DNA of 64,000 bases from Anthracocystis setariae (taxonomy: Eukaryota > Basidiomycota > Ustilaginomycetes > Ustilaginales > Ustilaginaceae): positions 1 through 64,000 of the forward strand of contig CAKMXJ010000027.1 in assembly GCA_928724745.1 (NCBI GenBank). The letters run 5' to 3'. Every line of letters starts with the position of its first letter. The stretch's first letter is position 1. This document shows, in pieces, positions 1 through 32,299 of the stretch. Below the pieces are notes generated by a model. It did not search any database and was not told the DNA's origin. It worked only from the letters and a program-made list of their open reading frames with translations. Made by a program: the position numbers and the translations under genes.

Positions 1-71
1 CCTAACCCTAACCCTAACCCTAACCCTAACCCTAACCCTAACCCTAACCCTAACCCTAACCCTAACCCTAA
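1..71. repeat. Terminal telomere repeat (CCCTAA)n
   Basis: About twelve uninterrupted copies of CCCTAA, the C-rich strand of the TTAGGG telomere common in filamentous fungi. Its position at base 1, with C-rich strand reading inwards, is what a left chromosome end looks like. It passes directly into the subtelomeric block with no spacer. Confidence 0.95.
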
Positions 72-9500: not shown

Positions 9501-10819
9501 ATGTAAGCCACGTTCGACAGTGTGATCTTGTTCGTTTTTCCTCGTCCGATGTTGACTTCGAGGTCCACTGTGCCAAGTCCTTCGATTTTGACCGGAACTT
9601 CGTTTGCTACCCAGATGGGTCGCATTGACACGCCTAGTTTGAGATCCCGGAATAGAGTCTTGTTACAACAGATGTGTCGACTGGCACCCGAGTCCATTAG
9701 CCACATTGTTGACCGCGGGTGTGTGAACTCACTGGCGGAGTAGACGTTATCGCGCCCGGGTTCACCAGTTTTGATGTTCGGTTGGGAACCCGACGTCGGG
9801 TTCTTGGGTTTCGGGCATTTGTTCGCATAGTGCCCCTTTTCTTGACAATTGAAGCAAGTGATCTTCTCGATTGGCGTTTTCGGCTTCGTCTTGGAGTTTC
9901 GCTTCGGGTTTCGTTGACCCTTCCGTTTGTTTTCTTGTCCGGCATAGTATGCCGATGACCCAACCCGGGTTCGCTGGTGCATGCCCTGAACGTTGATACC
10001 AAGGCGCAATTCCTCGCTTCGCAGGCGGGTAACGATATTGTCGAGCTCGACCTTCTCATTAATGACGGCACTCTCGACAACCAGGGTCTCGACTTCGTTG
10101 TCGCCCCTTCGGACGATCATTTCGCTTGTCTCTCGGCGTGCTCGGTAGGTCTCCTCGATTTGTGCTCGGATGTTATCATATTCCTTGCGGAGACCCTTCA
10201 TTAGTACGCTGTACTTCTTGTTGAAGCTAATTGTAATGCCTGCCATGGTCAGCTGGTCTGACAGTTCGGTGATTCGGCTGACGAATCCGTCGATGGTTCG
10301 TCTATCTTGCTTGAGACTGTTGAGCTCCGTCTCCATTTCCTCGAGTTGCCATTTCATGGCTTTAGCGAACCGTTCTTCGAGGGTTTTCCAGATTGTGTGC
10401 GCGTCTTCGAGGTCCGCGATAATGTGTTTGATCTCGCTTGAGAGACTGCTTTGTAGCATGCCGCAAGCGGTAAAGTTGGCGTTAATCCATTCTCCGTGCT
10501 TGGGGTCAGAGGCTTCAGGCCGGGGTAGAGTCCCCTTAATGATTCCATAGATTCGGGCACCCTTTTGCATAAGAATGTCGATGCATTGGTCCTTCCATTG
10601 GTAATAGTCGCGTGCCTGTGTCAATTTCGGCAATCCGGGGGAATTATGCGGGACCCCGTCGATGGATTGCATGATTTCTTCGGTGTATTCGGGACCCGTC
10701 GTCGGGTTCGGTAAATTTCTTTCGGGGTTTTCGTGTTCTCCGGTGATCGAATCGACTCGAGAGCGGGATCGAGTATTCAAGTATATATCGTTCGAGTTTC
10801 CAGCAGGCTTTGGGCTCAT
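6512..10819 (-). CDS. Ty1/copia Gag-Pol polyprotein (intact, 1435 aa)
   Basis: One uninterrupted frame holds all domains in copia order: a gag-like N-terminus; a CCHC knuckle (C322, C325, H330, C335); aspartic protease (DSGA at about 376); integrase with HHCC zinc site (H510, H515, C541, C544) and DDE residues at about D572, D635 and E671; reverse transcriptase with YVDD at 1108-1111; and RNase H with TDADHAG near 1284 and YAEY near 1326. It copies and inserts its own RNA. Small segments NPTSG, NPTTG, KPDVGF and KPAVGF (at about 38, 340, 557, 807, 889, 1093 and 1261) are encoded by the 12-bp palindrome in two different frames, one just before the integrase core and one just before YVDD. The start is the ATG three bases into the exon after the leader intron. 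Coding capacity looks intact, but without a 3' LTR this copy should not complete a normal cycle. Confidence 0.93.
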   Translation of the reverse strand: MSPKPAGNSNDIYLNTRSRSRVDSITGEHENPERNLPNPTTGPEYTEEIMQSIDGVPHNSPGLPKLTQARDYYQWKDQCIDILMQKGARIYGIIKGTLPRPEASDPKHGEWINANFTACGMLQSSLSSEIKHIIADLEDAHTIWKTLEERFAKAMKWQLEEMETELNSLKQDRRTIDGFVSRITELSDQLTMAGITISFNKKYSVLMKGLRKEYDNIRAQIEETYRARRETSEMIVRRGDNEVETLVVESAVINEKVELDNIVTRLRSEELRLGINVQGMHQRTRVGSSAYYAGQENKRKGQRNPKRNSKTKPKTPIEKITCFNCQEKGHYANKCPKPKNPTSGSQPNIKTGEPGRDNVYSASEFTHPRSTMWLMDSGASRHICCNKTLFRDLKLGVSMRPIWVANEVPVKIEGLGTVDLEVNIGRGKTNKITLSNVAYIPSFGVNLLSTGVMRKKVEIVTNDRETIARTTDGRITCRGVHIGPLTYVDQVGTDFAGMAAEHEANTTNWHKRLGHPGQARLEEIAKVVPQVTLNPRTPAKCETCQIGKSHKQPFSRNPTSGSTKPLELVHTDVVGPMPDETPQGHRYAVTFIDDFSRFTVAFLLTRKSEVYGHFLEYKTLMEKQTGQLIKRVRSDNGGEYTSKELAELLRGNGIIHEHTAPYMPEQNGVAERMNRTLFDLARCMMIQSSSPYHMWGDAFLHAVYLNNRFPTKGAGMKIPIQLLRSITPDFSLARTFGCAAWAHVPEERRDKLEPRALACIYVGIAAGTKAFKLYNVAEDRYITTVHATFDEGTFPFSYDTESSVRFAKPDVGFANPPRINTTTKEIDIPPQSNHQNAELQQNTSEDSNSWPYLTPEERAAGIQTPPGSPPSSPRLDALAALEETDGVEDPTSGLDDSDPIGLLDDEPRTITQAFRRPDWELWKQAVNRELASHKNNNTWNLVTPPKDANVIGSRWVFKIKRKSDGTIDKYKARLVAQGFAQKHGIDYDETFAPVVKLATLRLLMILSLQIGLTIYQMDVETAYLNGEIDKDIYMRPPPREPDADPHALGLLCKLNKSLYGLKQAGRTWYQKADSTLRGMGFKRSNHDSALYIKNPTSGSGTHPLVLTIYVDDILIFARSKPLAENVMNDLRKHFKMTGGEQLDYILGIQVKQSPDSIHLSQTSYIRRLLLTYGLESANIVHTPLNPSASLADGDLLSPSEHSKYRSIVGQILYIATCTRPDISYAVQRLSRELANPHSNAMVQAKHLLRYLKGTETHGLEYKPAVGFPIHDVNLDFGLLFQTFTDADHAGDTLTSRSTSGIVNTVNTMPYSWISKLQSIITDSTTYAEYVAMAEAAKEITWCRWLVEELGLKVKNPTQLMVDNRAAIELAKEPKFHNRTKHFRLKYHITQSYQAEGLLIVKPVSTTNQLADILTKALEKNKVQVNRENLHILPTN

Positions 10820-17369: not shown

Positions 17370-18259
17370 TGGCCCTAGCCCTAGGCCGTGGTGCGCCGGC
17401 TGCACGCGACGGTCAAGTCCGTCGCCCATTTCCCTGCCAAATGGCGGGCCCCTCCATTTGTACGTCACCCCAATGGACAGCCAAATTTACACTGCTCCTG
17501 TGCAGCAACGTCAAACGCCAGATTTTAGCAGGAGCACCGGGCAACGGGCAACGGACGCGTCAAAATTGCCAGGAAATTGGCTGGGCAATGGTCAAAGTGG
17601 AGGACTGGTCCAGTGCCTGACATACAGATCCAACTTTGTTACTGGCGCCGTGCCCAAAGTACAGATCTGGTGAGCGTGTCCGTGAGTGCATCAACTCTGG
17701 GTCAGCATGCAATCCTTTTTCCTGTCTGTCAGACCGCCATCAAGTCTATTCATCAGCGTGTCAGCTTTTCAGTGCATCAGCTTTTCAGTGCGTCAGTTGA
17801 TCAGACCCTTAGTTGGTTTGTCTGTCAACCGGGCCGGACTGGATCCCTTTGTTCACCACCACACAATGCCATTGCCAACACCATCTCCCTTTGTCCTTCT
17901 CCAAGGCGTGACATGCCTATCCAACCTATCAGCATGCGTCCAGTCAAGGATCCCCTTTGTTCCCACGCTCAGCCATTGTTTGGGCTGGGGCAAGTACAGC
18001 CGTTGTGTGCAAAAATTTTCACTGCGCTTGCCTGGCAGACTGTCCTGCCATGTGCATGCGCATGCTCTGGGGTCCGTACTACATTGTCTGTGAGTCACGC
18101 ACACTGAATGGTGTTGCTGAGCTGGCTGCTGGACGGGCCTCAGTGGTATATAGATGGGCGCCTGTTCTGCAGAGGACATCACATCCTCATCCTCTCTGTA
18201 CCAATCTCACTTGAATCTCTACGCCCATCATCAACGCAGACTGCTCAACATCTCCAATC
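17370..18259 (+). promoter_or_regulatory. Upstream region of the helicase gene, duplicated with it
   Basis: About 890 bp conserved in the inverted copy (about 31404-32299). It includes TATATAG at 18147-18153, 107 bp before the ATG, also kept in the second copy. Its outer edge in both copies is CCTAGCCCTAGG, the apparent limit of the duplicated unit. Short direct repeats (CAGCTTTTCAGTGC) occur near 17760-17800. Confidence 0.6.
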
Positions 18260-21200
18260 ATGACTCCACAGTCGCCGCCTCCTGCCAACAACAGCCAAGC
18301 TGATGGCAACATCAGCGCAGCACTTGACAACGAGTCAGTGGAAACTCCCTTGCTTGAAACGTAAGCTATTTGTGTCCTGTCCCCACACATCGCCAGCAAT
18401 TAGCGTGTTTCTGATACATGTGTCTTTCTCCAACACAGTCCTGTCTTACCTGCTGCAAACCAGCTGGCCGCCAATGCTGCTGCTGTACCCAACATTGCAG
18501 CTGCTGACAGCCGTGCTGCTGCTGCCCCCCAAGGCGCTGACCTTGGCCGCTTCTATCTCCGCTTGGTCAATCACCCGCAGTTGCTTGTCTGCACGCGCGC
18601 TGGCTGTACTCTTGGAGTCCCGCTGACACCCTTGTTCAAAGATGTTACTGCTCACCTGCAGCGTTTCCATCACCAGCCCCTTGGTGACGCTTCACGCCGC
18701 GCTATCCAGGCCATGCTTGATCAGCTTGACCTGCCGCTTCCCAAGGATGTCACTGTGGACCAAGATCAGCTGCCTGTGCCCAAGATCAAGGAGCTGCCGC
18801 TGGTCACAGACGGTTACCAGTGCAACCACTGCTCCTATGCCATCTTTGCCAGGAATGCCATGTATGCTCACCTCAAGGACAAACACGCAGACCTGAAGGT
18901 CAAAGCCAAGTCTACGCACCCTGTCCTGCTGCAGGTCATCCAGGAGCATGGCAAGAACAAGCGCTACATCTATGTGCAGGACAAGGAGCTGGACCCCACA
19001 CCTCCACAAGCCATCCTCAACCCCAACTTGGATGCACGCCAGCTGGACGATGCCATCAAAGCCAAGGCTGCTGCATTCATCCAGCAGGATCAAGATGCTC
19101 TCCGTGATGCAGGTCTGCTCAACCCTGTTGCGGACACATCCATGCGCACCGGCAACATTGGTCCCTGGGCCAAGCAGCTCAAGTGGCGCTCCTACTGGGC
19201 AGGCAAGCCGCTGACTGCCATTGGCGCCTTGGGCACAGACACATCAAGCTGGCCCGGCGCTCACAGTGACTTTGTTCACTGGCTGGCTAGAATGACCAAA
19301 GCCTTTGCTCTGCATTGGATGCAGGCATTTATGGACTCTGGCCGCTACATGCAGCAGACATTCCGTGCCTACAGTGACGAGCCGTCTGAGCCCTACAACC
19401 TCCAGCCTCCCACCATCAAGAAGCGTGCTGACATGTGGGGCAATGTCCTTGCTCTACTTGCACACCTTGCCTTGGACGGTGAGGCCCTCCACTATCACGG
19501 CAGCAGGACAGAGGAGCAGCATCTGGTGGTCACAGAAGAGGCCATAGAGGCCATTCTACACCTGCGTGACTTGTCAACGCTCTTTGACAATGACAATGAT
19601 GCCAGCGCCAACACCAGTGCACTTGCAGCTGCAGAGCACCAGCAACACATTCATGAGGTCACCCTTGCAGTGGAAGAAGCGCTGCTCAGCCTGTCCCACC
19701 AGCTCATCACGCAGCGGCCAGCAAAGCACGGTCAGACAGATGAGCTGATGCTGGTGCGTCTCTTCATGCACATGTGTGTGGACAGGGAAGGCATGCCCAA
19801 AGCCGTCAGCGCTGCCACCTCCATCATTGCCAGCCTGGAGTTCTGCGTGCGCGCTGTGTTGCACCACTACCTCTTCAATGACACCAACGGTCAGCTCTTG
19901 AAGATGTCTCCATCTCAGACGGACAAGGCCATGCGCAAGCACCTCAAGGAGAACGTCTACCACAACAGCAACTCTGCCAGCGCCCACCTCCAGTCTCTCC
20001 ACCGCTACGGCAAGGTGCTTGCTCAGGATGAAGTCACACCTTTCATCTGTTCTTGGGCGCATGACCTCAGCCACATCAAGTACGGAACAGAGGAGATCCA
20101 GATCACATGCCTCCAAGCTCTGATGCACGGTGCACAGGAACAGGCAGAGCGTCACCTGCGTCAGCTGTGTCTGCTACCAGAGGACGCCACGCTGGCCATC
20201 AACCTCAAACACATCCAAGATGATCACCGCAACACGCAACCAGGCTTCAACTTTGTCTCTGCCTCCCCAGAGCTCAGCAACCTCAGCACCGTCCTCTGCC
20301 GTGCTGTTGCTGGCAATGCCCCACCAGCGCGACCGTTGCTGGATGCCTACAGTGAGGAGCTGGAGTTTGATGCAGAAGCAGCACAGTCCTACTTCAGCAC
20401 GCACAACGAGTTCATCAAGCTGCTTGCCGTTCTCATTGAACTGGGCAGCGGTCTGCCAGCAAGAGGTACGGAACTGATGCAGCTTCAGCACACCAACACG
20501 CTCATGGGTCCACGCAACATCTTTGTCCATGATGGCAGCATCTTCACGGCACTGCCCACCAACAAGGGCTCAGGGCGGCAAAGGATCATCCCACGCTTCC
20601 TGCCTCACGCAGTTGGCTGCATGGTGGTCTACTACATCTCTCAGGTGGCGCCCTTTGTCCATCTGCTTCACAATGCCATCATCAAGCCCCGCCCAGCCTG
20701 CCACATGCTTCTTTCTATGCACAGTGGGCAGCCGCTGGACACCAACACCGTCAGCAAGATGCTGCAGGCGCTCCATCAGCAGCACATCAGCTCTGTCTCC
20801 AGCGGCATGACCATGCGCATGTGGCGTCAGGTTGCGGTAGCCATTGACCGCAAGCTCATCCGTCCAGGCTCTGCAAGCATGTCCAGCAAGGAAACAGATC
20901 AAGACAACGAGCATGATCTCCAAGCAGGTCACTTGACCAGCACCGCAGAGCAGCACTACGGCCTGGATGCAAGCATGCTCTACCAGCTCACGCAGGAAAG
21001 CATGGACTGCATGCTGGCGGTGTCAGAGCGCTGGCACACATTCTGGAGGATGCGCACACGCTTTCAAGAGGACACACAGCCATTCAACCAACTTGTTGAG
21101 CTTGGAAGTGGTGCAGACCACGCACAGGAGCTCAGAGGCATCAAGCGCAAGTTGGAGCTGGTAGAAGAGAGCGTGCTCACCATCAGACGCAAGCTGGAAC

Positions 21201-23281
21201 ACCACACTCCACCATCAGCGCACAGCACTGGCGGCAGCCTGCAGCTCAGCGGTGCTTCACGCTCTGCTGTGCTCCCACCAGCAGTCAGCAGGGCCCTCTT
21301 CCAGATTACCGGCAGCCACCGCACCAAGACACTGGAGCAGGCATATGCACTCAATGCCATTCACGCCAAGGAGTCTCCACTGATCATCATCATGGCCACT
21401 GGATCCGGCAAGTCTGCACTCTTCATGGCTCCACTGCACTGGCTGCCAGAGCGGTCTGTCATCATTGTGGTGGTGCCCTTCATTGCACTGACAGATGACC
21501 TCCTGCAAGACTGCTGCCGTGTTGGTGTCACTGCCAAGCGGTGGGCCAGCCACCAACCATCAAGAACAGTAGCAGGTGTGGGAGCCCAGCTGGTCTTTGT
21601 TGCGGTGGAGAACTGCCACAGTGTGGAGTTTGCTAATTGGGCACGCGTCTTGCAAGAAGAAAAGCAGCTGGCGGCCATCTTCTTTGATGAGTGTCACGTC
21701 TGCCTCACTCAGAGCAACTTCCGACCAGCCATGGACAAGATCAAGGCGTTGCTGTCTTCTGTGAAAGTGCAGCAGTACTTCCTCACTGCCACGCTACCAC
21801 CTGCGCTGGTGTCCACCCTCAAGACAGCGCTCCAGCTCCCGCATGACGGCACAGGCATGATACGTGCCAGCACCAACCGCAAGAACATCTCCTATGCGGT
21901 GCAACGGCTGAAGTCAGAGGACAGCATGTTGCTCTGCTTGGAAGAGCTCCTTGCAGCGCATCCAACAGGAGCAGTGATGGTCTTTTGCATCTCCAAGTCG
22001 GCCACAGCATTCATTGCAACAGCGCTTGGCTGCCCCTTCATCACATCAGACATGGATGAGGCATACAAGCAGACCACCATCTCAGCCTGGCTGCGGTGCT
22101 CCACCACAGAGACGGACAACAGCAAGCGCATCCTGGCAGGCACCACCGCCATTGGAACCGGCATCAACCCGCAGCACGTCAAGCTGGTAGTGCACTGCAC
22201 CAACACATTTGACATGATCAGCTATGTCCAAGAGTCTGGCCGTGCAGGCCGCAGCGGAGCACCAGCAACAGCAGTGCTGCTTGCGGTGAACAACACATCG
22301 GTCCAGCAGTACGTGGAGGAGCAGACATGTCGGCGCTTGATCATCTCCACCTATATTGATGGCATGCCGGTCACCTGCCTCAGCCAGCCAGACTTTGCGC
22401 TCTGTGACCTTTGCCATCAAGCAGTTGGGGAAGAACCTGGCACGCCACCCAGAACAACCATTGCGGTGGAGTCTCCTCCTGTCCACCAGCCCTGTCATGC
22501 CAGCAGCAGCTCACATCAGACACTGCAGCGCACACCCACAACCCCACAGCATCACAACGCAAGCGCTAGCAGCAGCAGGTTGCAGCAGATTACCAGCACC
22601 AGCACCTTGCGCTCACCAGCAGCACGCACACTACCAGCAGCACCGTACACGCCTACTCCACGTATGCTACACAGGGTCAACCAGCAGCCCAGTCCATCGG
22701 CCATGTTCTCTCACCGCTTGATGCCAGCACCACCTGACTTTGGCTCTCCAGTGCACACCGCTGATCCCAACATCTCCCACATACGCTCATTGCTGGAGCC
22801 ACTGGTGGACTGCTGCTCCCTCTGCTATCTCTTCAGCCGCAGTCACACATGCAGTGGAGAGCATGGTCTCAGCCACCGCTTCAAAGACTGTGCATGCTGG
22901 AACCAGATAGAGGCGCTGCTGCCGGAAATAGAGGATCCAGAACGCATCAATGGCACACACATTGGCAAGATCAAGAACCGCATGCGGAAGGACAAGGGAA
23001 GTACGTGCTGGACATGCCTGGTGCCGACAAAGGTGTGCTTGACCAGCAACGTCTCGGTGGCCACACCGTGCTCAAGGCGGTATGCAGATATAGTGTTGCC
23101 AGTGGTAGCTGCCATGCTCAGAGATGAGCCGTCTTGTATTGATGTGTTTCAACAGCTGGGCCGTCCCTTTGTGGACTTGGAGATGGTGGAGGCGGAGCTA
23201 GGAACCACGGTGCTGTATCATGGTGAGCGTGTCTTCCTAGCGTTTGCCATCTTTGCCACCGCTGTTCAGCTGGCAAATTAG
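18260..23281 (+). CDS. Telomere-linked RecQ-type helicase with C2H2 fingers and a tyrosine-recombinase-like domain (two exons)
   Basis: Exon 1 is 18260-18360, the intron 18361-18438 (GTAAGC ... CACAG), and exon 2 18439-23281, giving about 1647 residues. The long frame has no ATG at its 5' end; the splice supplies MTPQSPPPANN in phase, and the inverted copy shows the same structure. In order: two C2H2 fingers (C85, C90, H106, H111; C162, C165, H178, H183) like those of OrsD-type fungal proteins. Then a region matching tyrosine recombinases: PARGTEL (R709), TNKG (K743), MRMWRQVAVAI (R830), QAGHLTSTAEQHYG (H865, Y874). Then an SF2 helicase with Walker A MATGSGKS (about 1019), FDECH (1116-1120), TAT (1150) and QESGRAGRSG (about 1298), and a Cys-rich C-terminus. 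RecQ-type genes at chromosome ends are known in smuts and yeasts, where they are tied to telomere maintenance by recombination. The recombinase assignment rests on motifs only. Confidence 0.88.
18361..18438 (+). other. Intron of the recombinase-helicase gene
   Basis: 78 nt, GTAAGC to CACAG. The phase joins ...LLET to PVLPAANQ. The equivalent intron in the inverted copy (31302-31225) is also 78 nt. Confidence 0.8.
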
Positions 23282-23504
23282 TTGTTGACAGCAGCTCAGT
23301 CAGTCATACATAGTGTAAGTACATACATTCAGCAATGTGATGTGAGGAATACAGGTTTGCATAGCAGAGATAGGAACAGCATGATCAGCAAGTGAAAGTG
23401 CTGCTTGGGGGGATTGCCTTGTACTCCAATTTTGGCTGATGTGATTAGGTTCAGTATTGCAGTACGGAGCAATCCCCTGGCAGTCAGTTCTGTCTGGCCG
23501 TGTT
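23282..23504. other. Helicase 3' flank
   Basis: Non-coding. The last ~50 bp already contain a GGGGATTGCC/GCAATCCCC pair like those of the array that follows. Confidence 0.5.
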
Positions 23505-23960
23505 GAGGGGATTGCCTGGTAGTTGGCATTTGCCGGCAAAATTGGGCCTTGAATTTTGGGTACGGGGCAATCCCCTGGCAGTCAGTTCCGTCTGACTGAG
23601 GGGATTGCCTGGTAGTTGGCATTTGCCGGCAAAATTGGGCCTTGAATTTTGGGTACGGGGCAATCCCCTGGCAGTCAGTTCCGTCTGACTGAGGGGATTG
23701 CCTGGTAGTTGGCATTTGCCGGCAAAATTGGGCCTTGAATTTTGGGTACGGAGCAATCCCCTGCGTACACCTAACGCAAACATGTTTTGTTGAGGGGATT
23801 GCCTGGTAGTTGCCATTTGCCGGCAAAATTGGGCCTTGGATTTCAGGTACGGAGCAATCCCCTTGTGCGGCTGGTTTTCCTGTGACCGGGGATTGCCTGG
23901 TACCCAACTGGCAAGCACCAATCTGACTGTGCATTTGCATTATGAGGCAATCCCTTTCCG
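23505..23960. repeat. Array of inverted-repeat units between helicase and oxygenase gene
   Basis: Five units, starting at about 23505, 23598, 23691, 23792 and 23885, with a 93-bp period for the first three and about 101 then 93 bp after. Each unit opens with GGGGATTGCCTGGTA and closes with TACGG(G/A)GCAATCCCC, so its ends are inverted repeats around a core with TTTGCCGGCAAA. Intervening bases vary. It lies directly in front of the oxygenase ATG at 23994. Frames through it are repeat-derived. Confidence 0.8.
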
Positions 23961-23993
23961 CAACCTGCCTTTCCCATTCATTGCAACAAAGCA

Positions 23994-24920
23994 ATGCCAT
24001 CAACATCCCCAGAAGCCATACTCAGGAAGCGTGCAAGAGCAGCAGCCAGACGTCAAGCATACCAGCAAATGCAGCAAGAAGTGCAGCGGCTTGGGCTTGA
24101 CAAGCAGCATCGCATCACACGGAATACACCGCAAGAAGAGATCTCCACTTATCCTCTTCAAGAGATTAACATACCGTCCAACCTCACACTGTTTGACAAT
24201 GCCAACTCCAACATCATTCTGCAGCGCATCCGGCCCAGCAGTCACCGCAAAGCTCTGCAAGCTGCTGCCAGTTCAAAGATTGGCAAGGTCCTTTTCGACA
24301 AGTACTGCCTTTCAAATCCATCCATCCTTGACAAGAACAGACGCTCTATCGGACATCACCTTGGCATCTGGCATGATCAAGCACGGCAGACACTTGGCTA
24401 CACACAGCACACCCTCAACAGCCGGCACAAACAAGATGCGCTCAACCTCCTTGCTTGGACAAGAAAGCATACCGGCATGATCCTTGTGCCAACTCGACAC
24501 CTTTTTGAGCCACAGTTCTGCGCAAGTCTTGGCAGGCGGCTGAAGTCTTTTGATTGGCTCACTTCCATCTTTGGGGCAGACATGCTGTCGTATGTACACC
24601 CGTGGTACAGTACAGTTGCTTTCTTCCACGGGTTCTCTGGTGGCTTCCATAGAGATACCAACGATGTCAACCCTTCATTCCTTTTCTGCTTTGGTCAGCC
24701 ATTCTGGTTCGAGCTTCCTGAATACTCGATCAAGATCAGAGTCGAGCCTTATGATCTGCTTCTCCTCAACTCTCAGCAGTGTTGGCATCGCACAACTAGT
24801 ATTGACAACAACCACATTGCAGGACGGTGGGCCTTTAGCGCATTCCTGCGATCCAGTATCTTCAAGATGGATCCGGTCGCTCAGATTGCTGCTTCTCGAG
24901 TTGATCCCAATCAGATTTAG
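23994..24920 (+). CDS. 2-oxoglutarate/Fe(II) oxygenase, possibly TET/JBP-like (308 aa)
   Basis: A single-exon frame from ATG to TAG. The C-terminal half carries the Fe(II)/2OG signature HxD...H...R: GGFHRDTND (H219, D221), NSQQCWHRTT (H265), AGRWAFSAF (R278), in a double-stranded beta-helix-like context (FWFELPEYSIKIRVEPYDLLLLNSQQ). The N-terminus is basic and Gln/Arg-rich. Enzymes of this fold hydroxylate many substrates. The neighbouring minus-strand gene is a clearer TET/JBP relative, and fungal genomes can carry expanded TET/JBP families near transposons, which makes oxidation of a DNA base plausible here. Substrate is inferred. It is convergent with the next gene; only the GGAACTAC minisatellite lies between. 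Confidence 0.7.
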   Translation: MPSTSPEAILRKRARAAARRQAYQQMQQEVQRLGLDKQHRITRNTPQEEISTYPLQEINIPSNLTLFDNANSNIILQRIRPSSHRKALQAAASSKIGKVLFDKYCLSNPSILDKNRRSIGHHLGIWHDQARQTLGYTQHTLNSRHKQDALNLLAWTRKHTGMILVPTRHLFEPQFCASLGRRLKSFDWLTSIFGADMLSYVHPWYSTVAFFHGFSGGFHRDTNDVNPSFLFCFGQPFWFELPEYSIKIRVEPYDLLLLNSQQCWHRTTSIDNNHIAGRWAFSAFLRSSIFKMDPVAQIAASRVDPNQI

Positions 24921-25091
24921 ATGTTCTCCGCTCTCAATGTTACTTTCTCTCCAAATGCAATCTGTTCTGACTAAGCCTTGCTTTTTCCTTTTCATCAACC
25001 GCTTCTCAAAAATTTTCAACTGCATCAAACTTGAAAAAATCTTCAAGTCCCAATTCACACACTTTGACACACGGAATCACAAAACTTTGAC

Positions 25092-25228
25092 TGTGGAACT
25101 GTTGAACTATGGAATTATGGAACTACAGAACTACGGAACTACGGAACTACGGAACTACAGAACTGGAACTACGGAACTATGGAACTACGGAACTACGGAA
25201 CTATGGAACTACGGAACTACGGAACTAC
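25092..25228. repeat. GGAACTACG minisatellite between convergent genes
   Basis: About fifteen copies of an 8-9 bp unit (GGAACTACG, with ATGGAACT and CAGAACT variants). They end at the TAA stop of the minus-strand oxygenase gene. Confidence 0.9.
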
Positions 25229-26308
25229 TTAGGTGGTCTTGCTGTCAATGTGCTTGAAGAGATCCCAATTTTTGATGCATGTGTCCTTGTATGCCTCCTT
25301 CTCTTGTTCAGTCTTGCTGCCTGCCTTGCCTCTATGGCCTGCCCACTTGACAACATCGCTAGACATGAACATGGTCAATGAGCCTCGAGTCTCACCCTCT
25401 GCAATGTTGGTGTTGTAGTGATGCACAACATGCGATGGGAAGAAAGCAAGTGCACCAGGAGGGAACTCGATGCTGATGTTGGCCTCGTGCATGTTGAGCG
25501 TTGTGTGCCGATAGTCACCAACACTCATCACTCCAGCCAACCCTTGCAAGTAGTCCCTCCGGTCTCTGTGTGGAGCAGAGATTGCATTGGCCTCCTCGTT
25601 CAAAGCCAGGGATGGAAAGCACGGTCCAAACTTGAATCCCCCATATGGCTTGAACTCGGACGAATCTCCAACATACTGGTAGAAGCTGGCATGATCAGGA
25701 AAGCACTCGTAGAATTGGCGATTGCAATATGCCTGGATGCTCTTGAGGGACTCGGTGTCAAGGAAAGCCTGCATTTGAGGATATTGCATGAACTTCAAAT
25801 TCCAGTATGGCCCATCCATATGTGCTTGGTCCTGGCCACTGAGCATCAAATGCCATGTTCAAAAGTGACCTCCTCGGATAGCCTCCGTTGGAGCTCCTGC
25901 TGCCCATGGGAGAGCTTTCATCGAGGCTCGGACCTGATCCAGGCTGCTGTGGAACTCTGCTGCATGCAGCTCTGGGGGCAGGACCACACTGGCAAAGTGG
26001 AGACCGTTCTTGTCAACAAAATGTGTCCACCGAGTCTTCAACTTGATGCGTCTCAGCATTGCAGCATTGTTTCCCGGACTTGGCTCCTTTGGTAGGATCA
26101 GAGGCTGCGTCATGTACTTGTTTAGATCCAGGTCCGTTGTCACAATGAACGCCTCACCAGATTGTACATGCTTCCTGAATGCCAGCTTCCCTTTGCTTCG
26201 ACCACGCTTTCGTGGACCATGTTCCATCTGCCTCGGATGCTGCCAAATAAGCAGGTTTGGTTTCTTTATTTTCCTTGCCGTCTTGTCAACCGTTCTTTGC
26301 CTTGCCAT
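25229..26308 (-). pseudogene. TET/JBP-like 2-oxoglutarate oxygenase with one in-frame TGA
   Basis: Two minus-strand frames (149 and 206 codons) are in the same phase and separated only by a TGA at 25861-25859 plus three codons, so one gene of about 359 residues carries a single nonsense codon. The N-terminal part is basic (MARQRTVDKTARKIKK, GPRKRGRSKGK). The catalytic part has SAPHRDRRDYLQGLAGVMSVGDY (HxD), IEFPPGALAFFPSHVVHHYN (distal His) and GETRGSLTMFMSSDV (2OG Arg). This is the arrangement of fungal TET/JBP-related oxygenases, which oxidise 5-methylcytosine or thymine in DNA. The TGA could come from CGA by CpG transition, in line with CpG decay around it. Alternatives are a sequencing error, readthrough or a recently dead gene. 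Confidence 0.72.
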
Positions 26309-26716
26309 CTTGTCAACCGTACTGTGTTGTAGTCAATGTCTGTTATAGGACAGGCTTGTTCTTGTTCTCGTTTGATTTGCGTTTGGTTTGGGTTTGCGTG
26401 TTTGCTTGAGCTTTGGTTAGTGTTTGCGTTTTGGTTTGCGTTTGCGTGTCTTTCTCTTTTCACAGTGGGCGCCCCCTACGGTTCATATGCTGTCATTGCT
26501 CTATAAGTTTCTGCTATAGTACATAATCATTGTTGTCAAGTATTCTGAAGAATCTAACATTAAAAAATAGACCTCCTTGATTGCCAACATGGTTCAAGCC
26601 GAAACGGGATGTCTCAAATGCTCAGCCATGCCAACAACGCAAAGAGGGGGAAAAGCCAAAGCAAAACCCTACATTTTATAACCCAAAGCCAAAGCAAAAC
26701 CCTACATACAACCAGG
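26309..26716. other. Non-coding spacer with TTTGCGTTTGG-like repeats
   Basis: It contains degenerate GTTTGGTTTGCGTTTG repeats (about 26365-26450), the duplicated phrase CTTGCCNTCTTGTCAACCGT at 26273-26320 and AAAGCCAAAGCAAAACCCTAC direct repeats near 26660-26705. No gene supported. Confidence 0.55.
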
Positions 26717-27495
26717 CAGCCGATGTGATGCGCCATCTCCCAGCCTGGATGGCCCCCAGGTGTTCGACGTTGTATCACACCAACTGGCTTGTGTCGACAA
26801 ACATCAGCTTCCTTGCTTGCAATCATTGGGAGCCATCAATGATATACACACAAGGCGCCTCTGTCTGCCTACCCAAGACTCTGGTCAGTCCCTTGATAGC
26901 CAAATAAGCCAAATCAGCCGATGTGATGCACCATCTCCCAGCCTGGATGGCCCCCAGGTGTTCGACGTTGTATCACACCAACTGGCTTGGCTTGTGTCGA
27001 CAAACATTGGCTTCCTCATTTGTAATCATTGGGAGCCATCAATGATATACACACAAGGCGCCTCTGTCTGCCTACCCAAGACCCTCAATAATACCCCAAT
27101 AGCCAACATACCACATTACCATTGCTGCTCTGTGCCGTCAATACCCTAAAAGCCAACCTACCACATTACCATCGCTACGCTGTGCCGTCAATACCCCTGT
27201 GCCGTCAATACCCCAATAGCCAACATACCGCTTTACCATCACTGTGCTGTGCCGTCAATACCCCAACAGCCAAACTACCGCATTACCATCACTGTGCTGT
27301 GCCGTCAACCCAAAGACAAGCCAAATCAGCCAATGTGATGCGCCGTCTCCCAGCCTGGATGGCCCCCAGGTGCTTGACTTTGCATCACACCGACTGGCTT
27401 GTGTTGACAAACATCAGCTTCCTTGTTTGCAATCATTGGGAGCCATCAATGATATACACACAAGGCGCCTCTGTCTGCCTACCCAAGACCCTCAA
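26717..27495. repeat. Tandem ~165-bp repeats with inner ~45-bp repeats
   Basis: Three copies (about 26717-26884, 26917-27085, 27330-27491) of a unit from 'GCCGATGTGATGCGCCATCT' to 'TGTCTGCCTACCCAAGAC'. Between the second and third are four to five copies of a shorter unit containing CATTACCATCNCTNNGCTGTGCCGTCAATACC. No gene supported. Confidence 0.8.
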
Positions 27496-27506
27496 TAATA
27501 CCCCAA

Positions 27507-27866
27507 TGTTATGCTCCTGGGGTCTTAGAACCTCGGAACGTGGCGGTGCGTCTGTGTCGAGGCCAGGGGCGTGGTACCGGGTGTTGCTCCCGGGATCGTT
27601 GCCAAGATAGCGGAGCGGGTGAGCGGGAGATCGGGAGAAGGTCTGATATTTCCACCTACTAGAGTGAGTAAGCTAAAATACAATCGACGTCCTAACGTGA
27701 GTGTGGTGGACTTAGGACGTGGGATTATGTGGCCTCCCGGATACCCCCCGGGTGATGCCGCAGTCTGCCCCCCGATCCCCGATCCGGGGCGTCATCGGGG
27801 GGACCACTCCTGCCCGCTCTGATACTAAATCCAATCACTAACTCTCCCGATATCCCAATCATAACA
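27507..27866 (-). mobile_element. Complete solo LTR (family A) at a rearrangement junction
   Basis: 360 bp, TGTTATGCTCCTGGGG ... AATCATAACA, nearly identical to the gypsy 3' LTR and CpG-rich, so young. Flanks are CCCAA and CGTGG, not a target duplication. On its right, the minus-strand helicase copy stops abruptly in the codons for LTAT; on its left lies unrelated tandem repeat. It most likely marks recombination between two LTRs. Confidence 0.88.
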
Positions 27867-30800
27867 CGTGGCAGTGAGGAAGTACTGCTGCACATGCACA
27901 GAAGACAGCAACGCCTTGATCTTGTCCATGGCGGGTCGGAAGTTGCTCTGAGTGAGGCAGATGTGACACTCATCAAAGAAGATGGCCGCCAGCTGCTTTT
28001 CTTCTTGCAAGACACGTGCCCAATTAGCAAACTCCACACTGTGGCAGTTCTCCACCGCAACAAAGACCAGCTGGGCTCCCACACCTGCTACTGTTCTTGA
28101 TGGTTGGTGGCTGGCCCACCGCTTGGCAGTGACACCAACACGGCGGCAGTCTTGCAGGAGGTCATCTGTCAGCGCAATGAAGGGCACCACCACAATGATG
28201 ACAGACCGCTCTGGCAGCCAGTGCAGTGGAGCCATGAAGAGTGCAGACTTGCCGGATCCGGTGGCCATGATGATGATCAGCGGAGACTCCTTGGCGTGAA
28301 TGGCATTGAGTGCGTAGGCTTGCTCCAGTGTCTTGGTGCGGTGGCTGCCGGTAATCTGGAAGAGGGCCCTGCTGACCGCTGGTGGGAGCACAGCAGAGCG
28401 TGAAGCACCGCTGAGCTGCAGGCTGCCGCCAGTGCTGTGCGCTAATGGTGGAGTGTGGTGTTCCAGCTTGCGTCTGATGGTGAGCACGCTCTCTTCTACC
28501 AGCTCCAACTTGCGCTTGATACCTCTGAGCTCCTGTGCGTGGTCTGCACCGCTTCCAAGCTCAACAAGTTGGTTGAACGGCTGTGTGTCCTCTTGAAAGC
28601 GCGTGCACATCCTCCAGAATGTGTGCCAGCGCTCTGACACCGCCAGCATGCGGTCCATGCTTTCCTGCGTGAGCTGGTAGAGCATGCTTGCATCCAGGCC
28701 GTAGTGCTGCTCTGCAGTGCTGGTCAAGTGACCTGCTTGGAGATCATGCTCGTTGTCTTGATCTGTTTCCTTGCTGGACATGCTTGCAGAGCCTGGACGG
28801 ATGAGCTTGCGGTCAATGGCTACTGCAACCTGACGCCACATGCGCATGGTCATGCCGCTGGAGACAGAACTGATGTGCTGCTGATGGAGCGCCTGCAGCA
28901 TCTTGCTGACGGTGTTGGTGTCCAGCGGCTGTCCACTGTGCGTAGAAAGAAGCATGTGGCAGGCTGGGCGGGGCTTGATGATGGCATTGTGAAGCAGATG
29001 GACAAAGGGCGCCACCTGAGAGACGTAGTAGACCACCATGCAGCCAACTGCATGAGGCAGGAAGCGTGGGATGATCCTTTGCCGCCCTGAGCCCTTGTTG
29101 GTGGGCAGTGCCGTGAAGACGCTGCCATCATGGACAAAGATGTTGCGTGGACCCATGAGCGTGTTGGTGTGCTGAAGCTGCATCAGTTCCGTACCTCTTG
29201 CTGGCAGACCGCTGCCCAGTTCAATGAGAACGGCAAGCAGCTTGATGAACTCGTTGTGCGTGCTGAAGTAGGACTGTGCTGCTTCTGCATCAAACTCCAG
29301 CTCTTCACTGTAGGCATCCAGCAGCGGTTGCGCTGATGGGGCGTTGCCAGCAACGGCACGGCAGAGGACGGTGCTGAGGCTGCTGAGCTCTGGGGAGGCG
29401 GTGACAAAGTTGAAGCCTGGTTGCATGTTGCGGTGATCATCTTGGATGTGTTTGAGGTTGATGGCCAGCGTGGCGTCCTCTGGGAGCAGACACAGCTGAC
29501 GCAGGTGACGCTCTGCCTGTTCCTGTGCACCGTGCATCAGAGCTTGGAGGCGTGTGATCTGGATCTCCTCTGTTCCGTACTTGATGTGGCTGAGGTTGTG
29601 CGCCCAAGAACAGATGAATGGCGTGACTTCATCCTGAGCAAGCACCTTGCCGTAGCGGTGGAGAGACTGGAGGTGGGCGCTGGCAGAGTTGCTGTTGTGG
29701 TAGACGTTCTCCTTGAGGTGCTTGCGCATGGCCTTGTCTGTCTGAGATGGAGACATCTTCAAGAGCTGACCGTTGGTGTCATTGAAGAGGTAGTGGTGCA
29801 GCACAGCACGCATGCAGAACTCCAGGCTGGCAATGATGGAGGTGGCAGCGCTGACGGCTTTGGGCATGCCTTCCCTGTCCACACACATGTGCATGAAGAG
29901 ACGCACCAGCATCAGCTCATCTGTCTGACCGTGCTTTGCTGGCCGCTGCGTGATGAGCTGGTGGGACAGGCTGAGCAGCGCTTCTTCCACTGCAAGGGTG
30001 ACCTCATGAATGTGTTGCTGGTGCTCTGCAGCTGCAAGTGCACTGGTGTTGGCGCTGGCATCATTGTCATTGTCAAAGAGCGTTGACAAGTCACGCAGGT
30101 GTAGAATGGCCTCTGTGGCCTCTTCTGTGACCACCAGATGCTGCTCCTCTGTCCTGCTGCCGTGATAGTGGAGGGCCTCACCGTCCAAGGCAAGGTGTGC
30201 AAGTAGAGCAAGGACATTGCCCCACATGTCAGCCCGCTTCTTGATGGTGGGAAGCTGGAGGTTGTAGGGCTCAGACGGCTTGTCACTGTAGGCACGGAAT
30301 GTCTGCTGCATGTAGCGGCCAGAGTCCATAAAGGCCTGCATCCAATGCAGAGCAAAGGCTTTGGTCATTCTAGCCAGCCAGTGAACAAAGTCACTGTGAG
30401 CGCCGGGCCAGCTTGATGTGTCTGTGCCCAAGGCGCCAATGGCAGTCAGCGGCTTGCCTGCCCAGTAGGAGCGCCACTTGAGCTGCTTGGCCCAGGGACC
30501 AATGTTGCCGGTGCGCATGGACATGTCCACAACAGGGTTGAGCAGACCTGCATCACGGAGAGCATCTTGATCCTGCTGGATGAATGCAGCAGCCTTGGCT
30601 TTGATGGCATTGTCCAGCTGGCGTGCATCCAAGTTGGGGTTGAGGATGGCTTGTGGAGGCGTGGGGTCCAGCTCCTTGTCCTGCACATAGACGTAGCGCT
30701 TGTTCTTGCCATGTTCCTGGATGACCTGCAGCAGGACAGGGTGCGTAGACTTGGCTTTGACCTTCAGGTCTGCATGTTTATCCTTGAGGTGAGCGTACAT

Positions 30801-31403
30801 TGCATTCCTGGCAAAGATGGCATAGGAGCAGTGGTTGCACTGGTAACCGTCTGTGACCACCGGCAGCTCCTTGATCTTGGGCACAGGCAGCCGATCTTGG
30901 TCCACAGTGACGTCCTTGGGAAGCGGCAGGTCAAGCTGATCAAGCATGGCCTGGATAGCACGGCGTGAAGCGTCACCAAGAGGCTGGTGATGGAAACGCT
31001 GCACGTGAGCAGTAACATCTTTGAATGAGGGTGTTAGCGGGACTCCAAGAGTGCAGCCAATGCGCGTGCAGACAAGCAACTGCGGGTGATTGACCAAGCG
31101 GAGATAGAAGCGGCCAAGGTCAGCGCCTTGGGCAGCAGCAGCAACAGCACGGCTGTCAGCAGCTGCAACATCAGGTACAGCAGCAGCATTGGCGGCCAGC
31201 TGGTTTGCAGCAGGTAAGACAGGACTGTGTTGGAAAAAGACACATGTATCAGAAACACGCTAATTGCTGGTGATGCGTGGGGACAGGACACAAAAGGCTT
31301 ACGTTTCAAGCAAGGGAATTTCCACTGACTCGTTGTCAAGTGCTGCGCTGATGTTGCCGTCAACTTGGCTGTTGTTGGCAGGAGGCGGTGACTGTGAAGT
31401 CAT
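27867..31403 (-). pseudogene. Second recombinase-helicase gene, inverted and truncated in the helicase domain
   Basis: Exon 1 is 31403-31303, the intron 31302-31225, and exon 2 31224 down to 27867, where it runs into an LTR. It is very similar to the plus-strand copy: same two fingers, same R, K, R, H and Y of the recombinase-like region, Walker A and FDECH. It ends right after motif III (LTAT), so motifs IV-VI and the Cys-rich tail are lost and helicase activity is unlikely. The fingers and recombinase-like domain are intact, with no stop codon before the break. Its 5' region includes one extra Ala codon relative to copy 1. The shared TATA and upstream region are kept. Confidence 0.88.
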
Positions 31404-32299
31404 GATTGGAGATGTTGAGCAGTCTGCGTTGATGATGGGCGTAGAGATTTGAGTGAGATTGGTACAGAGAGGATGAGGATGTGATGTCCTCTGCAGAACA
31501 GGCACCCATCTATATACCACTGGAGCCTGTCCAGCCAGCTCAGCGATGCCATTCAGTGTGCGTGACTCACAGACAATGTAGTACGGACAAAGCATGTACC
31601 TGGCAGGACAGTCTGCCAGGCAAGCGCAGTGAAAATTTTTGCACACAACGGCTGTACTTGCCCCAGCACAAACAATGGCTGACCGTGGGAACAAAGGGGA
31701 TCCTTGACTGGACGCATGCTGATAGGTTGGATAGGCATGTCACGCCATGGTCAAGGACAAAGGGAGATGGTGTTGGCAATGGCATTGTGTGGTGGTGAAC
31801 AAAGGGATCCAGTCCGGCCCGGTTGACAGACAAACCAACTGAGGGTCTGATCAACTGACGCACTGAAAAGCTGACGCACTGAAAAGCTGACGCGCTGATC
31901 AATAGACTTGATGGCGGTCTGACAGTCAAAGAAAATGAATGTGCTGGTCAATTGATGTGCTGGCGGTCTGACAGACGGGAAAAAGGAGACACGCTCACTG
32001 GATCTGTACTTTGGGCACGGCGCCAGTGTCAAAGTTGGATCTGTACATCAGGCACTGGACCAGTCCTCCACTTTGACCATTGCCCAGCCAATTTCCTGGC
32101 AATTTTGACGCGTCCGTTGCCCGTTGCCCGTTGCTCCTGCTAAAATCTGGCGTTTGACGTCGCTGCACTGGAGCAGTGTAAATTTGGCTGTCCATTGGGG
32201 TGACGTACAAATGGCAGGCCCCGCCATTTGGCAGGGAAATGGGCGACGGATTTGACCGTTGCGTGCAGCCGGCGCACCACGGCCTAGGGCTAGGTCTGT
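31404..32299 (-). repeat. Upstream arm of the inverted helicase duplication
   Basis: Reverse complement of 17370-18259 with scattered substitutions and small indels, ending at CCTAGGGCTAGGTC. With the coding part, the two arms form an inverted repeat of about 4.4 kb each, about 6 kb apart. Confidence 0.8.

What the first reader, a model, noticed from the sequence alone, without database searches (positions are those of the whole stretch)
18260..23281. Subtelomeric gene fusing C2H2 fingers, a tyrosine-recombinase-like domain and a RecQ-type helicase
The protein has between its zinc fingers and its helicase a region with every landmark of a tyrosine recombinase in order: ARGTEL (Arg), a beta-turn Lys (TNKG), MRMWRQVAVAI (second Arg), QAGHLTSTAEQHYG (His and catalytic-type Tyr). 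These residues are also kept in the truncated second copy. Crypton and Starship elements use such recombinases. Attached to a helicase at a chromosome end, it could drive site-specific recombination or movement of subtelomeric ends, rather than being only a helicase. RecQ-type genes at fungal telomeres are known; I do not know of an experimental description of the recombinase part.
Basis: partly seen in the sequence, partly recalled or inferred. Interest (0 to 1): 0.86.

Follow-up and report, generated by a model that had tools for sequence, protein, structure and literature searches.

The report
Telomere helicase gene fused to recombinase
A gene at the chromosome ends of what is probably a smut fungus, of a kind described so far as a helicase, also carries what looks like an intact DNA-recombining enzyme and sits just inside the one sharply defined end of a DNA block that has joined many different places at a three-letter target, so it may be what moves chromosome ends around.

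Summary
The gene (18260-23281, one inferred 78-bp intron, 1647 aa) encodes OrsD/C2H2, a tyrosine-recombinase (TR)-like region and a RecQ-type helicase. Of 167 aligned proteins with all five columns (Basidiomycota and Ascomycota), 163 keep R709, K743, R830, H865 and Y874, which align in register with XerD (E 4e-4; a smaller version beat 400 shuffles). The box-II His position (827) is not conserved, and no structure could be predicted.

Beyond the finding: the gene starts 886 bp inside a repeat whose 5' end is exact. All 40 exact copies of CCTAGCCCTAGG in the genome are 5' ends of such units, 30 of one family, 10 of a second whose protein is ~51% identical. Flanks differ. At 12 of 13 target sites an unoccupied relative has CCT at the joint; two weaker relatives, left out, do not. 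Of 36 units judged, 35 read toward the nearer contig end; the window's own copy is the exception. No fixed 3' end was found.

Best reading: a TR-helicase mobile element of chromosome ends that joins its 5' terminus at CCT. That the TR does the joining is inferred; whether insertion is one-ended is open.

The parts
17374..17385 (+). 5' terminus of the element, CCTAGCCCTAGG; exact boundary
   Evidence: 40 of 40 exact genome occurrences are element 5' ends (30 family A, 10 family B); a 31st family-A end (C14) has a changed 12-mer
17374..23407 (+). part of the element shared by the family-A lineages compared (5' terminus to 126 bp past the stop codon)
   Evidence: copies on C10 (right), C7 and C6 diverge from the window at 23407, C10 (left) at 23451; C15 and the inner C10 copy continue with the window's sequence
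23408..27507 (+). lineage-B 3' sequence (variable cargo) shared with C15 left and the inner C10 right copy, with small differences and an insertion in the latter; not a fixed end
18260..18360 (+). exon 1 of the TLH gene (ATG)
   Evidence: splice sites inferred from sequence
18439..23281 (+). exon 2 of the TLH gene, with stop codon
18578..18886 (+). OrsD / C2H2 domain
   Evidence: Pfam PF12013, E 6.6e-8
20360..21052 (+). tyrosine-recombinase-like catalytic region (residues 675-905): R709 20462-20464, K743 20564-20566, R830 20825-20827, H865 20930-20932, Y874 20957-20959
21335..22258 (+). RecQ-type helicase core (DEAD to Helicase_C)
   Evidence: NCBIfam recQ_fam matches 28 of 33 members of alignment A2, whose window row did not include the helicase
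27864..32294 (-). second family-A unit, 5' terminus at 32283-32294, gene cut off in the helicase where an LTR-like repeat (27507-27866) begins
23994..24920 (+). cargo ORF, 308 aa; HxD...H residues seen by eye; at best a weak resemblance to a TET-like dioxygenase
   Evidence: PDB 5cg8 E 0.29, not significant; no such Pfam match
25229..25849 (-). cargo ORF, 206 aa, weak Tet_JBP match
   Evidence: Tet_JBP E 6.5e-4, below the curated cut-off; PDB 5cg8 E 0.22
1..71 (+). telomere, CCCTAA repeats

Best explanation
The gene is the main gene of a mobile element of chromosome ends. SHOWN: (1) it encodes OrsD/C2H2 + TR-like region + RecQ-type helicase in one reading frame; (2) the residues R-K-R-H-Y are kept across two phyla; (3) the unit has one exact end, CCTAGCCCTAGG, 886 bp upstream of the start codon, in two families whose proteins are about 51% identical, while the rest of the leader aligns only in short patches; (4) this end is joined to many different flanks, and unoccupied relatives of the flanks show CCT at the joint in 12 of 13 cases; (5) units read toward the nearer contig end in 35 of 36 cases judged. 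INFERRED: the TR recognises the 12-bp terminus, cuts at CCT with Tyr874 through a 3'-phosphotyrosine, and joins the element's CCT to a target CCT; OrsD/C2H2 fingers help bind DNA; the helicase opens the DNA or helps copy out to the chromosome end. The result is a chromosome whose end, distal to a CCT, is now the element plus the subtelomeric DNA behind it.
For: Domains and residues. Profile match to a XerD-led TR profile: E 5.4e-4 with 49 rows (R709, K743 and R830 in the main alignment, H865/Y874 in a second short one) and E 3.6e-4 local / 9.2e-5 global with 169 rows, all five in register in the local alignment. For the 49-row profile the real score of 31.5 was not reached by 400 shuffles (best 24.0) or the reversed profile (13.2); two neighbouring regions of the same protein gave E 0.11 and 0.19. 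Purifying selection on the TR region among 8 in-genome copies: dN/dS 0.15, helicase 0.11. Exact 5' end. CCT targets. Direction. The gene is first and reads inward from the fixed end, as for a Starship captain (PMC12289983, passages).
Against: No structure prediction. The first position of the HxxR box (827) is A 61, R 40, S 26, Q 26, P 8, H 5, L 1, G 1 in the 169 rows, so the box-II His of standard TRs is not conserved. No Pfam match up to E 10 and no TR match in the PDB sequences for the TR region; none in the lists, which show the 25 commonest families only. The profile match is modest: with shallow profiles unrelated single E. coli proteins scored better than the TRs (YgfZ E 0.0069), no unrelated protein was tested against the deep profile, and the 169-row version was not shuffled. 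No match to the genome's own DIRS-type TRs (E 0.25). One target (C10 right) has CCC; some copies of the satellite target have CGT or TCT; a 70% relative of the C23 site has GCT; the two weak relatives left out (C8, C9 at 61694) do not show CCT. No fixed 3' end, no direct repeat at both ends and no excision product was found. Telomeres at C6, C8 and C9 sit on other DNA as if healed, so missing distal flanks may be later losses.
Confidence: 0.6

Rival explanations
1. A conventional two-ended TR transposon (Crypton- or Starship-like): a circle or linear form integrates at CCT, leaving CCT at both ends; the 3' end and right flank exist but were lost by terminal breakage or lie in DNA not read. The bias to chromosome ends would come from target choice (AC|CCT resembles the telomere C strand) or from survival.
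For: Exact 5' end with a short shared word, TR gene first and inward; Cryptons have 4-6 bp terminal direct repeats (PMC3212892, passages). Telomeres here seem healed on other DNA, so loss of right flanks is plausible. The inner C10 copy lies 64.6 kb from the contig end, and 777.5-809 kb behind it was not read.
Against: Three lineages share the 5' 6 kb, but no common 3' end was found. Right flanks were not found at the six sites where enough distal DNA could be judged nor downstream of the window's own copy; other sites were ambiguous or had too little distal DNA.
Confidence: 0.22
2. The TR-like region is a catalytically dead DNA-binding relic and the block spreads by other means: break-induced replication primed by the AGG-3' end of a processed terminus pairing with CCT, or a reverse transcriptase acting in trans.
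For: Box-II His position not conserved; the terminus resembles degenerate telomere repeat, so end annealing at CCT is conceivable; in 3 of 20 distinct joints a TTAGGG array ends 13-14 bp before the element.
Against: All five residues are kept in 163 of 167 rows, whereas domesticated Crypton derivatives lost most of theirs (PMC3212892, passages); 41 of 41 units found begin at the same base, where microhomology repair would be expected to start at many places; no RT domain in the three ORFs scanned.
Confidence: 0.12
3. An ordinary subtelomeric gene family: a host telomere-maintenance helicase spread among chromosome ends by homologous recombination.
For: That is how the family is described: TLH/UTASa in U. 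maydis (PMC10532341, section 14) and TLH in F. oxysporum (PMC12857005, passages). Later exchange clearly shuffles the 3' parts: family B shares lineage-A 3' sequence.
Against: Homologous exchange does not create an exact boundary against 20 distinct flanks, at least one inside another TLH gene and others in dispersed repeats, with CCT at the joint in 12 of 13.
Confidence: 0.06

Closest known systems
Telomere-linked helicases (TLH) / UTASa-UTASb of Ustilago maydis
   Same: Subtelomeric, multi-copy, RecQ-like core, OrsD domain reported for UTASb (PMC10532341, section 14); the closest named proteins are from Kalmanozyma, Ustilago and Sporisorium
   Different: The TR region, the exact CCTAGCCCTAGG terminus and the CCT target are in none of the passages read; [quoted passage not shown]
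Starship elements (captain tyrosine recombinase)
   Different: No DUF3435 match in the three proteins; TR fused to OrsD and a helicase; no defined 3' end; units found near contig ends
Crypton transposons
   Same: TR-encoding fungal element with a short sequence word at the joint
   Different: No GCR1_C match; Cryptons have 4-6 bp repeats at both ends (PMC3212892, passages), here only the 5' CCT is seen; the word helicase does not occur in that paper's main text
Telomere-targeted non-LTR elements (MoTeR, FoTeR)
   Same: Live at fungal chromosome ends, in F. oxysporum often beside TLH genes (PMC12857005, passages)
   Different: They encode reverse transcriptase; no RT domain in the three ORFs of this unit that were scanned

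Membership tests
Tyrosine recombinase superfamily | Arg-I and Arg-II | tested here: met
   R709 168 of 169; R830 166 of 168 with a residue there
Tyrosine recombinase superfamily | beta-hairpin Lys | tested here: met
   K743 169 of 169
Tyrosine recombinase superfamily | conserved His at the first position of the HxxR box | tested here: not met
   position 827 is A, R, S, Q, P, H, L or G; H in 5 of 169
Tyrosine recombinase superfamily | His/Trp-III and nucleophile Tyr about 9 residues apart | tested here: met
   H865 166 of 167, Y874 167 of 167 with a residue there
Tyrosine recombinase superfamily | profile similarity to proven members | tested here: met
   E 3.6e-4 local, 9.2e-5 global to a 157-member XerD-led profile, residues in register (shuffles of the 49-row version). 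Not found with shallow profiles, where unrelated proteins scored as well or better and 6 of 10 pairs of known TRs failed too
Tyrosine recombinase superfamily | catalytic fold | not tested
Telomere-linked helicase family | RecQ-type core, multi-copy at chromosome ends | tested here: met
Starship | DUF3435-type captain | tested here: not met
   no PF11917 match in three proteins up to E 10 (HMMER filters drop most matches above about 0.1)
Starship | captain first at the 5' end, reading inward | tested here: met
   start codon 886 bp inside the fixed 5' end
Starship | two defined ends with a target-site repeat | tested here: inconclusive
   only the 5' end is defined
Crypton | YR with GCR1_C domain (CryptonF) | tested here: not met
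   no such Pfam match up to E 1
Crypton | 4-6 bp direct repeats at both termini | tested here: inconclusive
   CCT at the 5' joint in 12 of 13; 3' end unknown
MoTeR/FoTeR non-LTR elements | reverse transcriptase | tested here: not met
   no RT domain in the gene or the two cargo ORFs; the rest of the unit was not scanned

The most novel reading that the evidence does not exclude
Fungal telomere-linked helicases with this OrsD-TR-RecQ layout are the transposition proteins of a separate class of mobile element: one-ended, telomere-directed TR-helicase elements that join a fixed 12-bp terminus to CCT targets and replace everything distal with themselves and their telomere, so that chromosome ends are swapped or copied by a dedicated site-specific enzyme in many Ascomycota and Basidiomycota.
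Probability: 0.35. Interest if true: 0.95.

Novelty: new variant of a known kind. Interest (0 to 1): 0.85.

Why it matters
Subtelomeric RecQ-like genes of fungi have been discussed as helicases with a possible role in telomere maintenance (PMC10532341, PMC12857005, PMC7473861, passages read). If they are TR-helicase mobile elements, the question of what they do, why they sit at chromosome ends in many copies and why those ends change becomes directly testable with a defined 12-bp site, a CCT target and one tyrosine to mutate. It would also add a helicase-fused branch to the eukaryotic tyrosine-recombinase elements.

Tried and rejected
Direct sequence searches for a TR match failed: PDB, Pfam, PHROGs, NCBIfam; searches show the 25 families matched by most members, so a rare weak match could be hidden. 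PF11917 (DUF3435) was not found in the own genome, but the control rang nowhere, so this says nothing. hhalign with shallow TR profiles gave nothing, and unrelated proteins (YgfZ 0.0069, TrhA 0.0096, YigA 0.011) scored better than the TRs; known TRs also failed against each other in 6 of 10 pairs (E above 0.05). The deep profile was built for that reason. In one search Cre and lambda Int are part of the deep profile, so their strong scores are no independent control; DIRS (E 1.6e-9) is not part of it.

A fixed 3' end was sought by comparing three lineages and the telomere joints and not found. At C9 the telomere sits inside a repeat unit, so it is no natural 3' end. A Helitron-like reading (hairpin near a fixed end) was dropped: the residues are not those of an HUH enzyme (recalled), and the hairpin z-scores (-1.9, -2.8) are weak.

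Left out of the CCT count: W2, L005, L009, L014 and L019 have no unoccupied relative in the DNA held; L016 (26 bp; shows TCA) and L021 at 3694 (30-34 bp, most with a gap; no CCT) were judged too weak, and with them the count would be 12 of 15; the joint at C7:787160 (L208) was not tested. L004 and L022, L020a-c, and C36/C16 were each counted as one site. The C34 joint was placed from alignment coordinates; its own flank letters were not read. Right flanks could not be judged at the satellite sites (L004, L022), at L013 and L016 (contig ends inside the unit) or at C5 (little distal DNA held). The conservation counts rest on proteins found by searching with this region itself, which favours conserved ones; 73 of 193 hits were not listed.
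Full report
WHAT IS THERE. The window starts with a telomere, (CCCTAA)n at 1-71. The gene of the finding runs from an ATG at 18260 through a 78-bp GT..AG intron (18361-18438, inferred) to a stop at 23281 and gives 1647 aa. Pfam sees OrsD, DEAD and Helicase_C; the region between them has no Pfam match even at E 10. A second copy lies on the minus strand (5' end at 32294), cut off in its helicase where an LTR-like repeat begins. The organism is not given; the closest named protein is from the smut Kalmanozyma brasiliensis, 92% identical over the region searched.

IS THE MIDDLE A TYROSINE RECOMBINASE? Named ones are from Kalmanozyma, Ustilago and Sporisorium (16 proteins), from Stereocaulon, Villophora, Letrouitia and Xanthomendoza (34 proteins with the query), and from Penicillium, Aspergillus, Botrytis and Teloschistes, with two odd names noted below (193 proteins, 120 listed). 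Most of those listed carry helicase domains, and many carry OrsD. In the 169 proteins aligned (window and P0001-P0168), R709 is R in 168 (1 H), K743 is K in 169, R830 is R in 166 (2 H, 1 gap), H865 is H in 166 (1 Y, 2 gaps) and Y874 is Y in 167 (2 gaps). All five are present together in 163 of the 167 rows that have all five columns; the exceptions are P0010, P0013, P0022 and P0032, each of which could be a single C-to-T type change (inference; their DNA was not seen). In a set thinned to 33 sequences below 62% identity the five columns are among the first 22 of 450 ranked by conservation; 827 ranks 45. Against a profile of 157 known or phage XerD/HP1-type recombinases the region scores E 5.4e-4 with 49 rows and E 3.6e-4 local or 9.2e-5 global with 169 rows, with R709, K743, R830, H865 and Y874 lying on R, K, R, H and Y of XerD in the local alignment. 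The score of the 49-row profile, 31.5, was not reached in 200 block shuffles (best 20.0), 200 column shuffles (best 24.0) or the reversed profile (13.2); the 169-row profile was not shuffled. Two neighbouring regions of the same protein gave E 0.11 and 0.19. Against this stand: no curated TR family match seen (with capped lists); shallow profiles found nothing and unrelated E. coli proteins scored better there, the best at E 0.0069, though 6 of 10 pairs of known TRs failed as well; no match to the DIRS-type TRs of the same genome (E 0.25); and the first position of the HxxR box, where most TRs have a catalytic His (recalled), is variable here (A 61, R 40, S 26, Q 26, P 8, H 5, L 1, G 1). Among eight copies in this genome the TR region evolves under constraint, dN/dS 0.15, with 0.11 for the helicase and 0.15-0.22 elsewhere in the protein.

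THE UNIT HAS ONE EXACT END. Comparing the copies by DNA showed 15 family-A units, in the window and 11 other loci, that all begin at the same base, CCTAGCCCTAGGCC..., 886 bp before the start codon in the window. Their upstream flanks differ, except that three tandem fragments share one flank and two units sit in the same satellite. Among the flanks of the two families are a dispersed repeat, a 70-bp satellite and a family-B TLH gene; others look by eye like transposon or dioxygenase genes. The 150-bp 5' end has 31 matches in the 21.5-Mb genome, all starting at its first base. The 12-mer CCTAGCCCTAGG occurs 40 times (5 for the reversed-pattern control). Thirty of these are among the 31 family-A ends; the other ten are the ends of a second family, again all starting at base 1. 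The second family's proteins are about 51% identical to the first, and beyond the first 13 bases the two leaders align only in short patches. So the terminus is conserved while its surroundings are not, as expected of a recognition site. Both leaders have a subterminal palindrome near +33 to +52 (z -1.9 and -2.8), which is weak evidence.

THE TARGET IS CCT. For 13 distinct joints an unoccupied relative of the flank could be aligned to the junction: in 12 the next bases are CCT, in one (C10 right) CCC (tally, chance about 3e-21 at 1/64 each). Three of the 13 belong to the second family. Exceptions within these: some copies of the satellite have CGT or TCT at that place, and a more distant relative of the C23 site has GCT. 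Two weak cases that I left out (relatives of 26 and 30-34 bp) do not show CCT; counting them gives 12 of 15. Upstream there is a weaker preference: A at -2 in 7 of 10 and C at -1 in 7 of 10 sites, and G at -6 in 12 of 18 flanks (made before the last three sites were added). In 3 of 20 distinct joints a TTAGGG array ends 13-14 bp before the element. Five further joints gave no unoccupied relative and one was not tested (see Tried and rejected).

DIRECTION AND THE OTHER END. Of 36 units judged, 35 read toward the nearer contig end; the exception is the window's first copy, C26:17374. Four plus-strand units on contigs of unknown length were left out; for C30 and C31 the length is also unknown, and they were counted as near the start by their low coordinate. 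Behind the gene the sequence varies: C10, C7 and C6 right share one 3' sequence; the window, C15 left and the inner C10 copy share another; C10 left has a third. Family B shares the first kind, so 3' parts have been exchanged. No common 3' end was found. The distal flank of the target was looked for where enough distal DNA could be judged. It was not found at C10 left and C23 (C23 holds a 71% relative of part of it), at C10 right to the contig end, at C9 up to a true telomere, at C15 left except for 70% relatives (291 bases not held) and at the inner C10 copy in the parts read (777.5-809 kb not read); downstream of the window's copy no match was seen, only matches upstream of it. At C9 a family-A unit sits inside a family-B TLH gene, has lost its own gene, and runs into the telomere. 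But the telomere repeats at C8 and C9 sit on transposon or repeat DNA, and those at C6 on what looks like coding DNA, so ends here seem to break and heal, and lost distal flanks are not proof of a one-ended reaction.

HOW IT MOST LIKELY WORKS. The anatomy is that of a tyrosine-recombinase element: enzyme gene first, reading inward from an exact end that shares a short word with its target. I infer that the TR binds the 12-bp terminus, cuts at CCT through Tyr874 and joins it to a target CCT, and that the fused helicase opens DNA or drives copying toward the chromosome end. With a crossover between a terminus on one chromosome and a CCT on another, the product is what is seen: foreign proximal flank, CCT, element, subtelomere, telomere. 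Confidence by step: mobile unit with an exact end about 0.95; TR homology about 0.85; TR as the joining enzyme about 0.65; one-ended end replacement rather than two-ended insertion about 0.4. These are judgements, not computed.

WHAT IS KNOWN. TLH/UTASa genes of smut fungi are known as RecQ-like subtelomeric genes with possible telomere functions (PMC10532341, section 14 and passages; PMC4466345, passages). [quoted passage not shown] FoTeR work in Fusarium describes TLH genes at many chromosome ends, with no occurrence of the word recombinase (PMC12857005, passages). A screen of TE co-option in fungi names helicases but, in the passages seen, not this fusion (PMC10799480); PMC8381367, PMC11457142 and PMC3627910 were looked at in passages and do not make the link there. 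Seven library searches listed no paper whose title, start of abstract or passages read link these genes to a tyrosine recombinase; one search listed 15 of 19 and one search listed 20 of 25 papers, the library holds open-licence PMC papers only, and a 2024 paper on tlh families in F. oxysporum is not held. Comparison with Starships and Cryptons uses passages of PMC12289983 and PMC3212892. The catalytic roles assigned to individual TR residues are recalled knowledge apart from the R-H-R-Y tetrad quoted in PMC3212892.

VERDICT. It is a new variant of a known kind: a member of the TLH genes that works like a tyrosine-recombinase element. Membership in the TR superfamily is likely but not complete, because the box-II position fails and the fold is untested.

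Noticed in passing
window 23994-24920 (+) and 25229-25849 (-): Two ORFs behind the gene resemble TET-like 2OG-Fe(II) dioxygenases weakly (Tet_JBP E 6.5e-4 for the second only; PDB 5cg8 E 0.2-0.3 for both). ORFs that look by eye like the first lie behind the gene in the C10 and C7 right lineage.
   Followed up: partly
L024-L035 (own genome): Twelve PF00589 matches; most lie in what by eye are DIRS-like elements, with an RT-type frame beside a ~370-aa tyrosine recombinase.
   Followed up: partly
L207 (C6 right end), L209 (C8 left end), L021 (C9 right end): Telomere repeats sit directly on other DNA: Copia-like sequence at C8, the inside of a 1.15-kb repeat unit at C9, coding-like DNA at C6, as if broken ends had been healed.
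   Followed up: no
window 17374 (+): The window's first copy is the only one of 36 judged that points away from the nearer contig end; it faces the second, truncated copy.
   Followed up: no
window 3957-5328: A 70-bp satellite near the telomere, about 20 copies; at the C7 and C11 ends the same satellite has been joined by the element at the same position, GAAATT|CCT.
   Followed up: partly
L020 (C5:911577, 913368, 915185): Three tandem 5' fragments of the element share one flank: a secondary tandem repeat.
   Followed up: no
C28:21131-21162 and C30:24369-24400: Only the first 32 bp of the family-A end match (116 bp at C33 and C34, 418 bp at C9): shortened units that keep the terminus.
   Followed up: no
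P0076, P0084: Hits named as plant (Tanacetum) and bacterial (Salinispora) RecQ proteins, probably fungal contamination (not tested).
   Followed up: no
window 6512-10819 (-): A 1435-aa open frame that looks by eye like a Copia polyprotein, uninterrupted.
   Followed up: no
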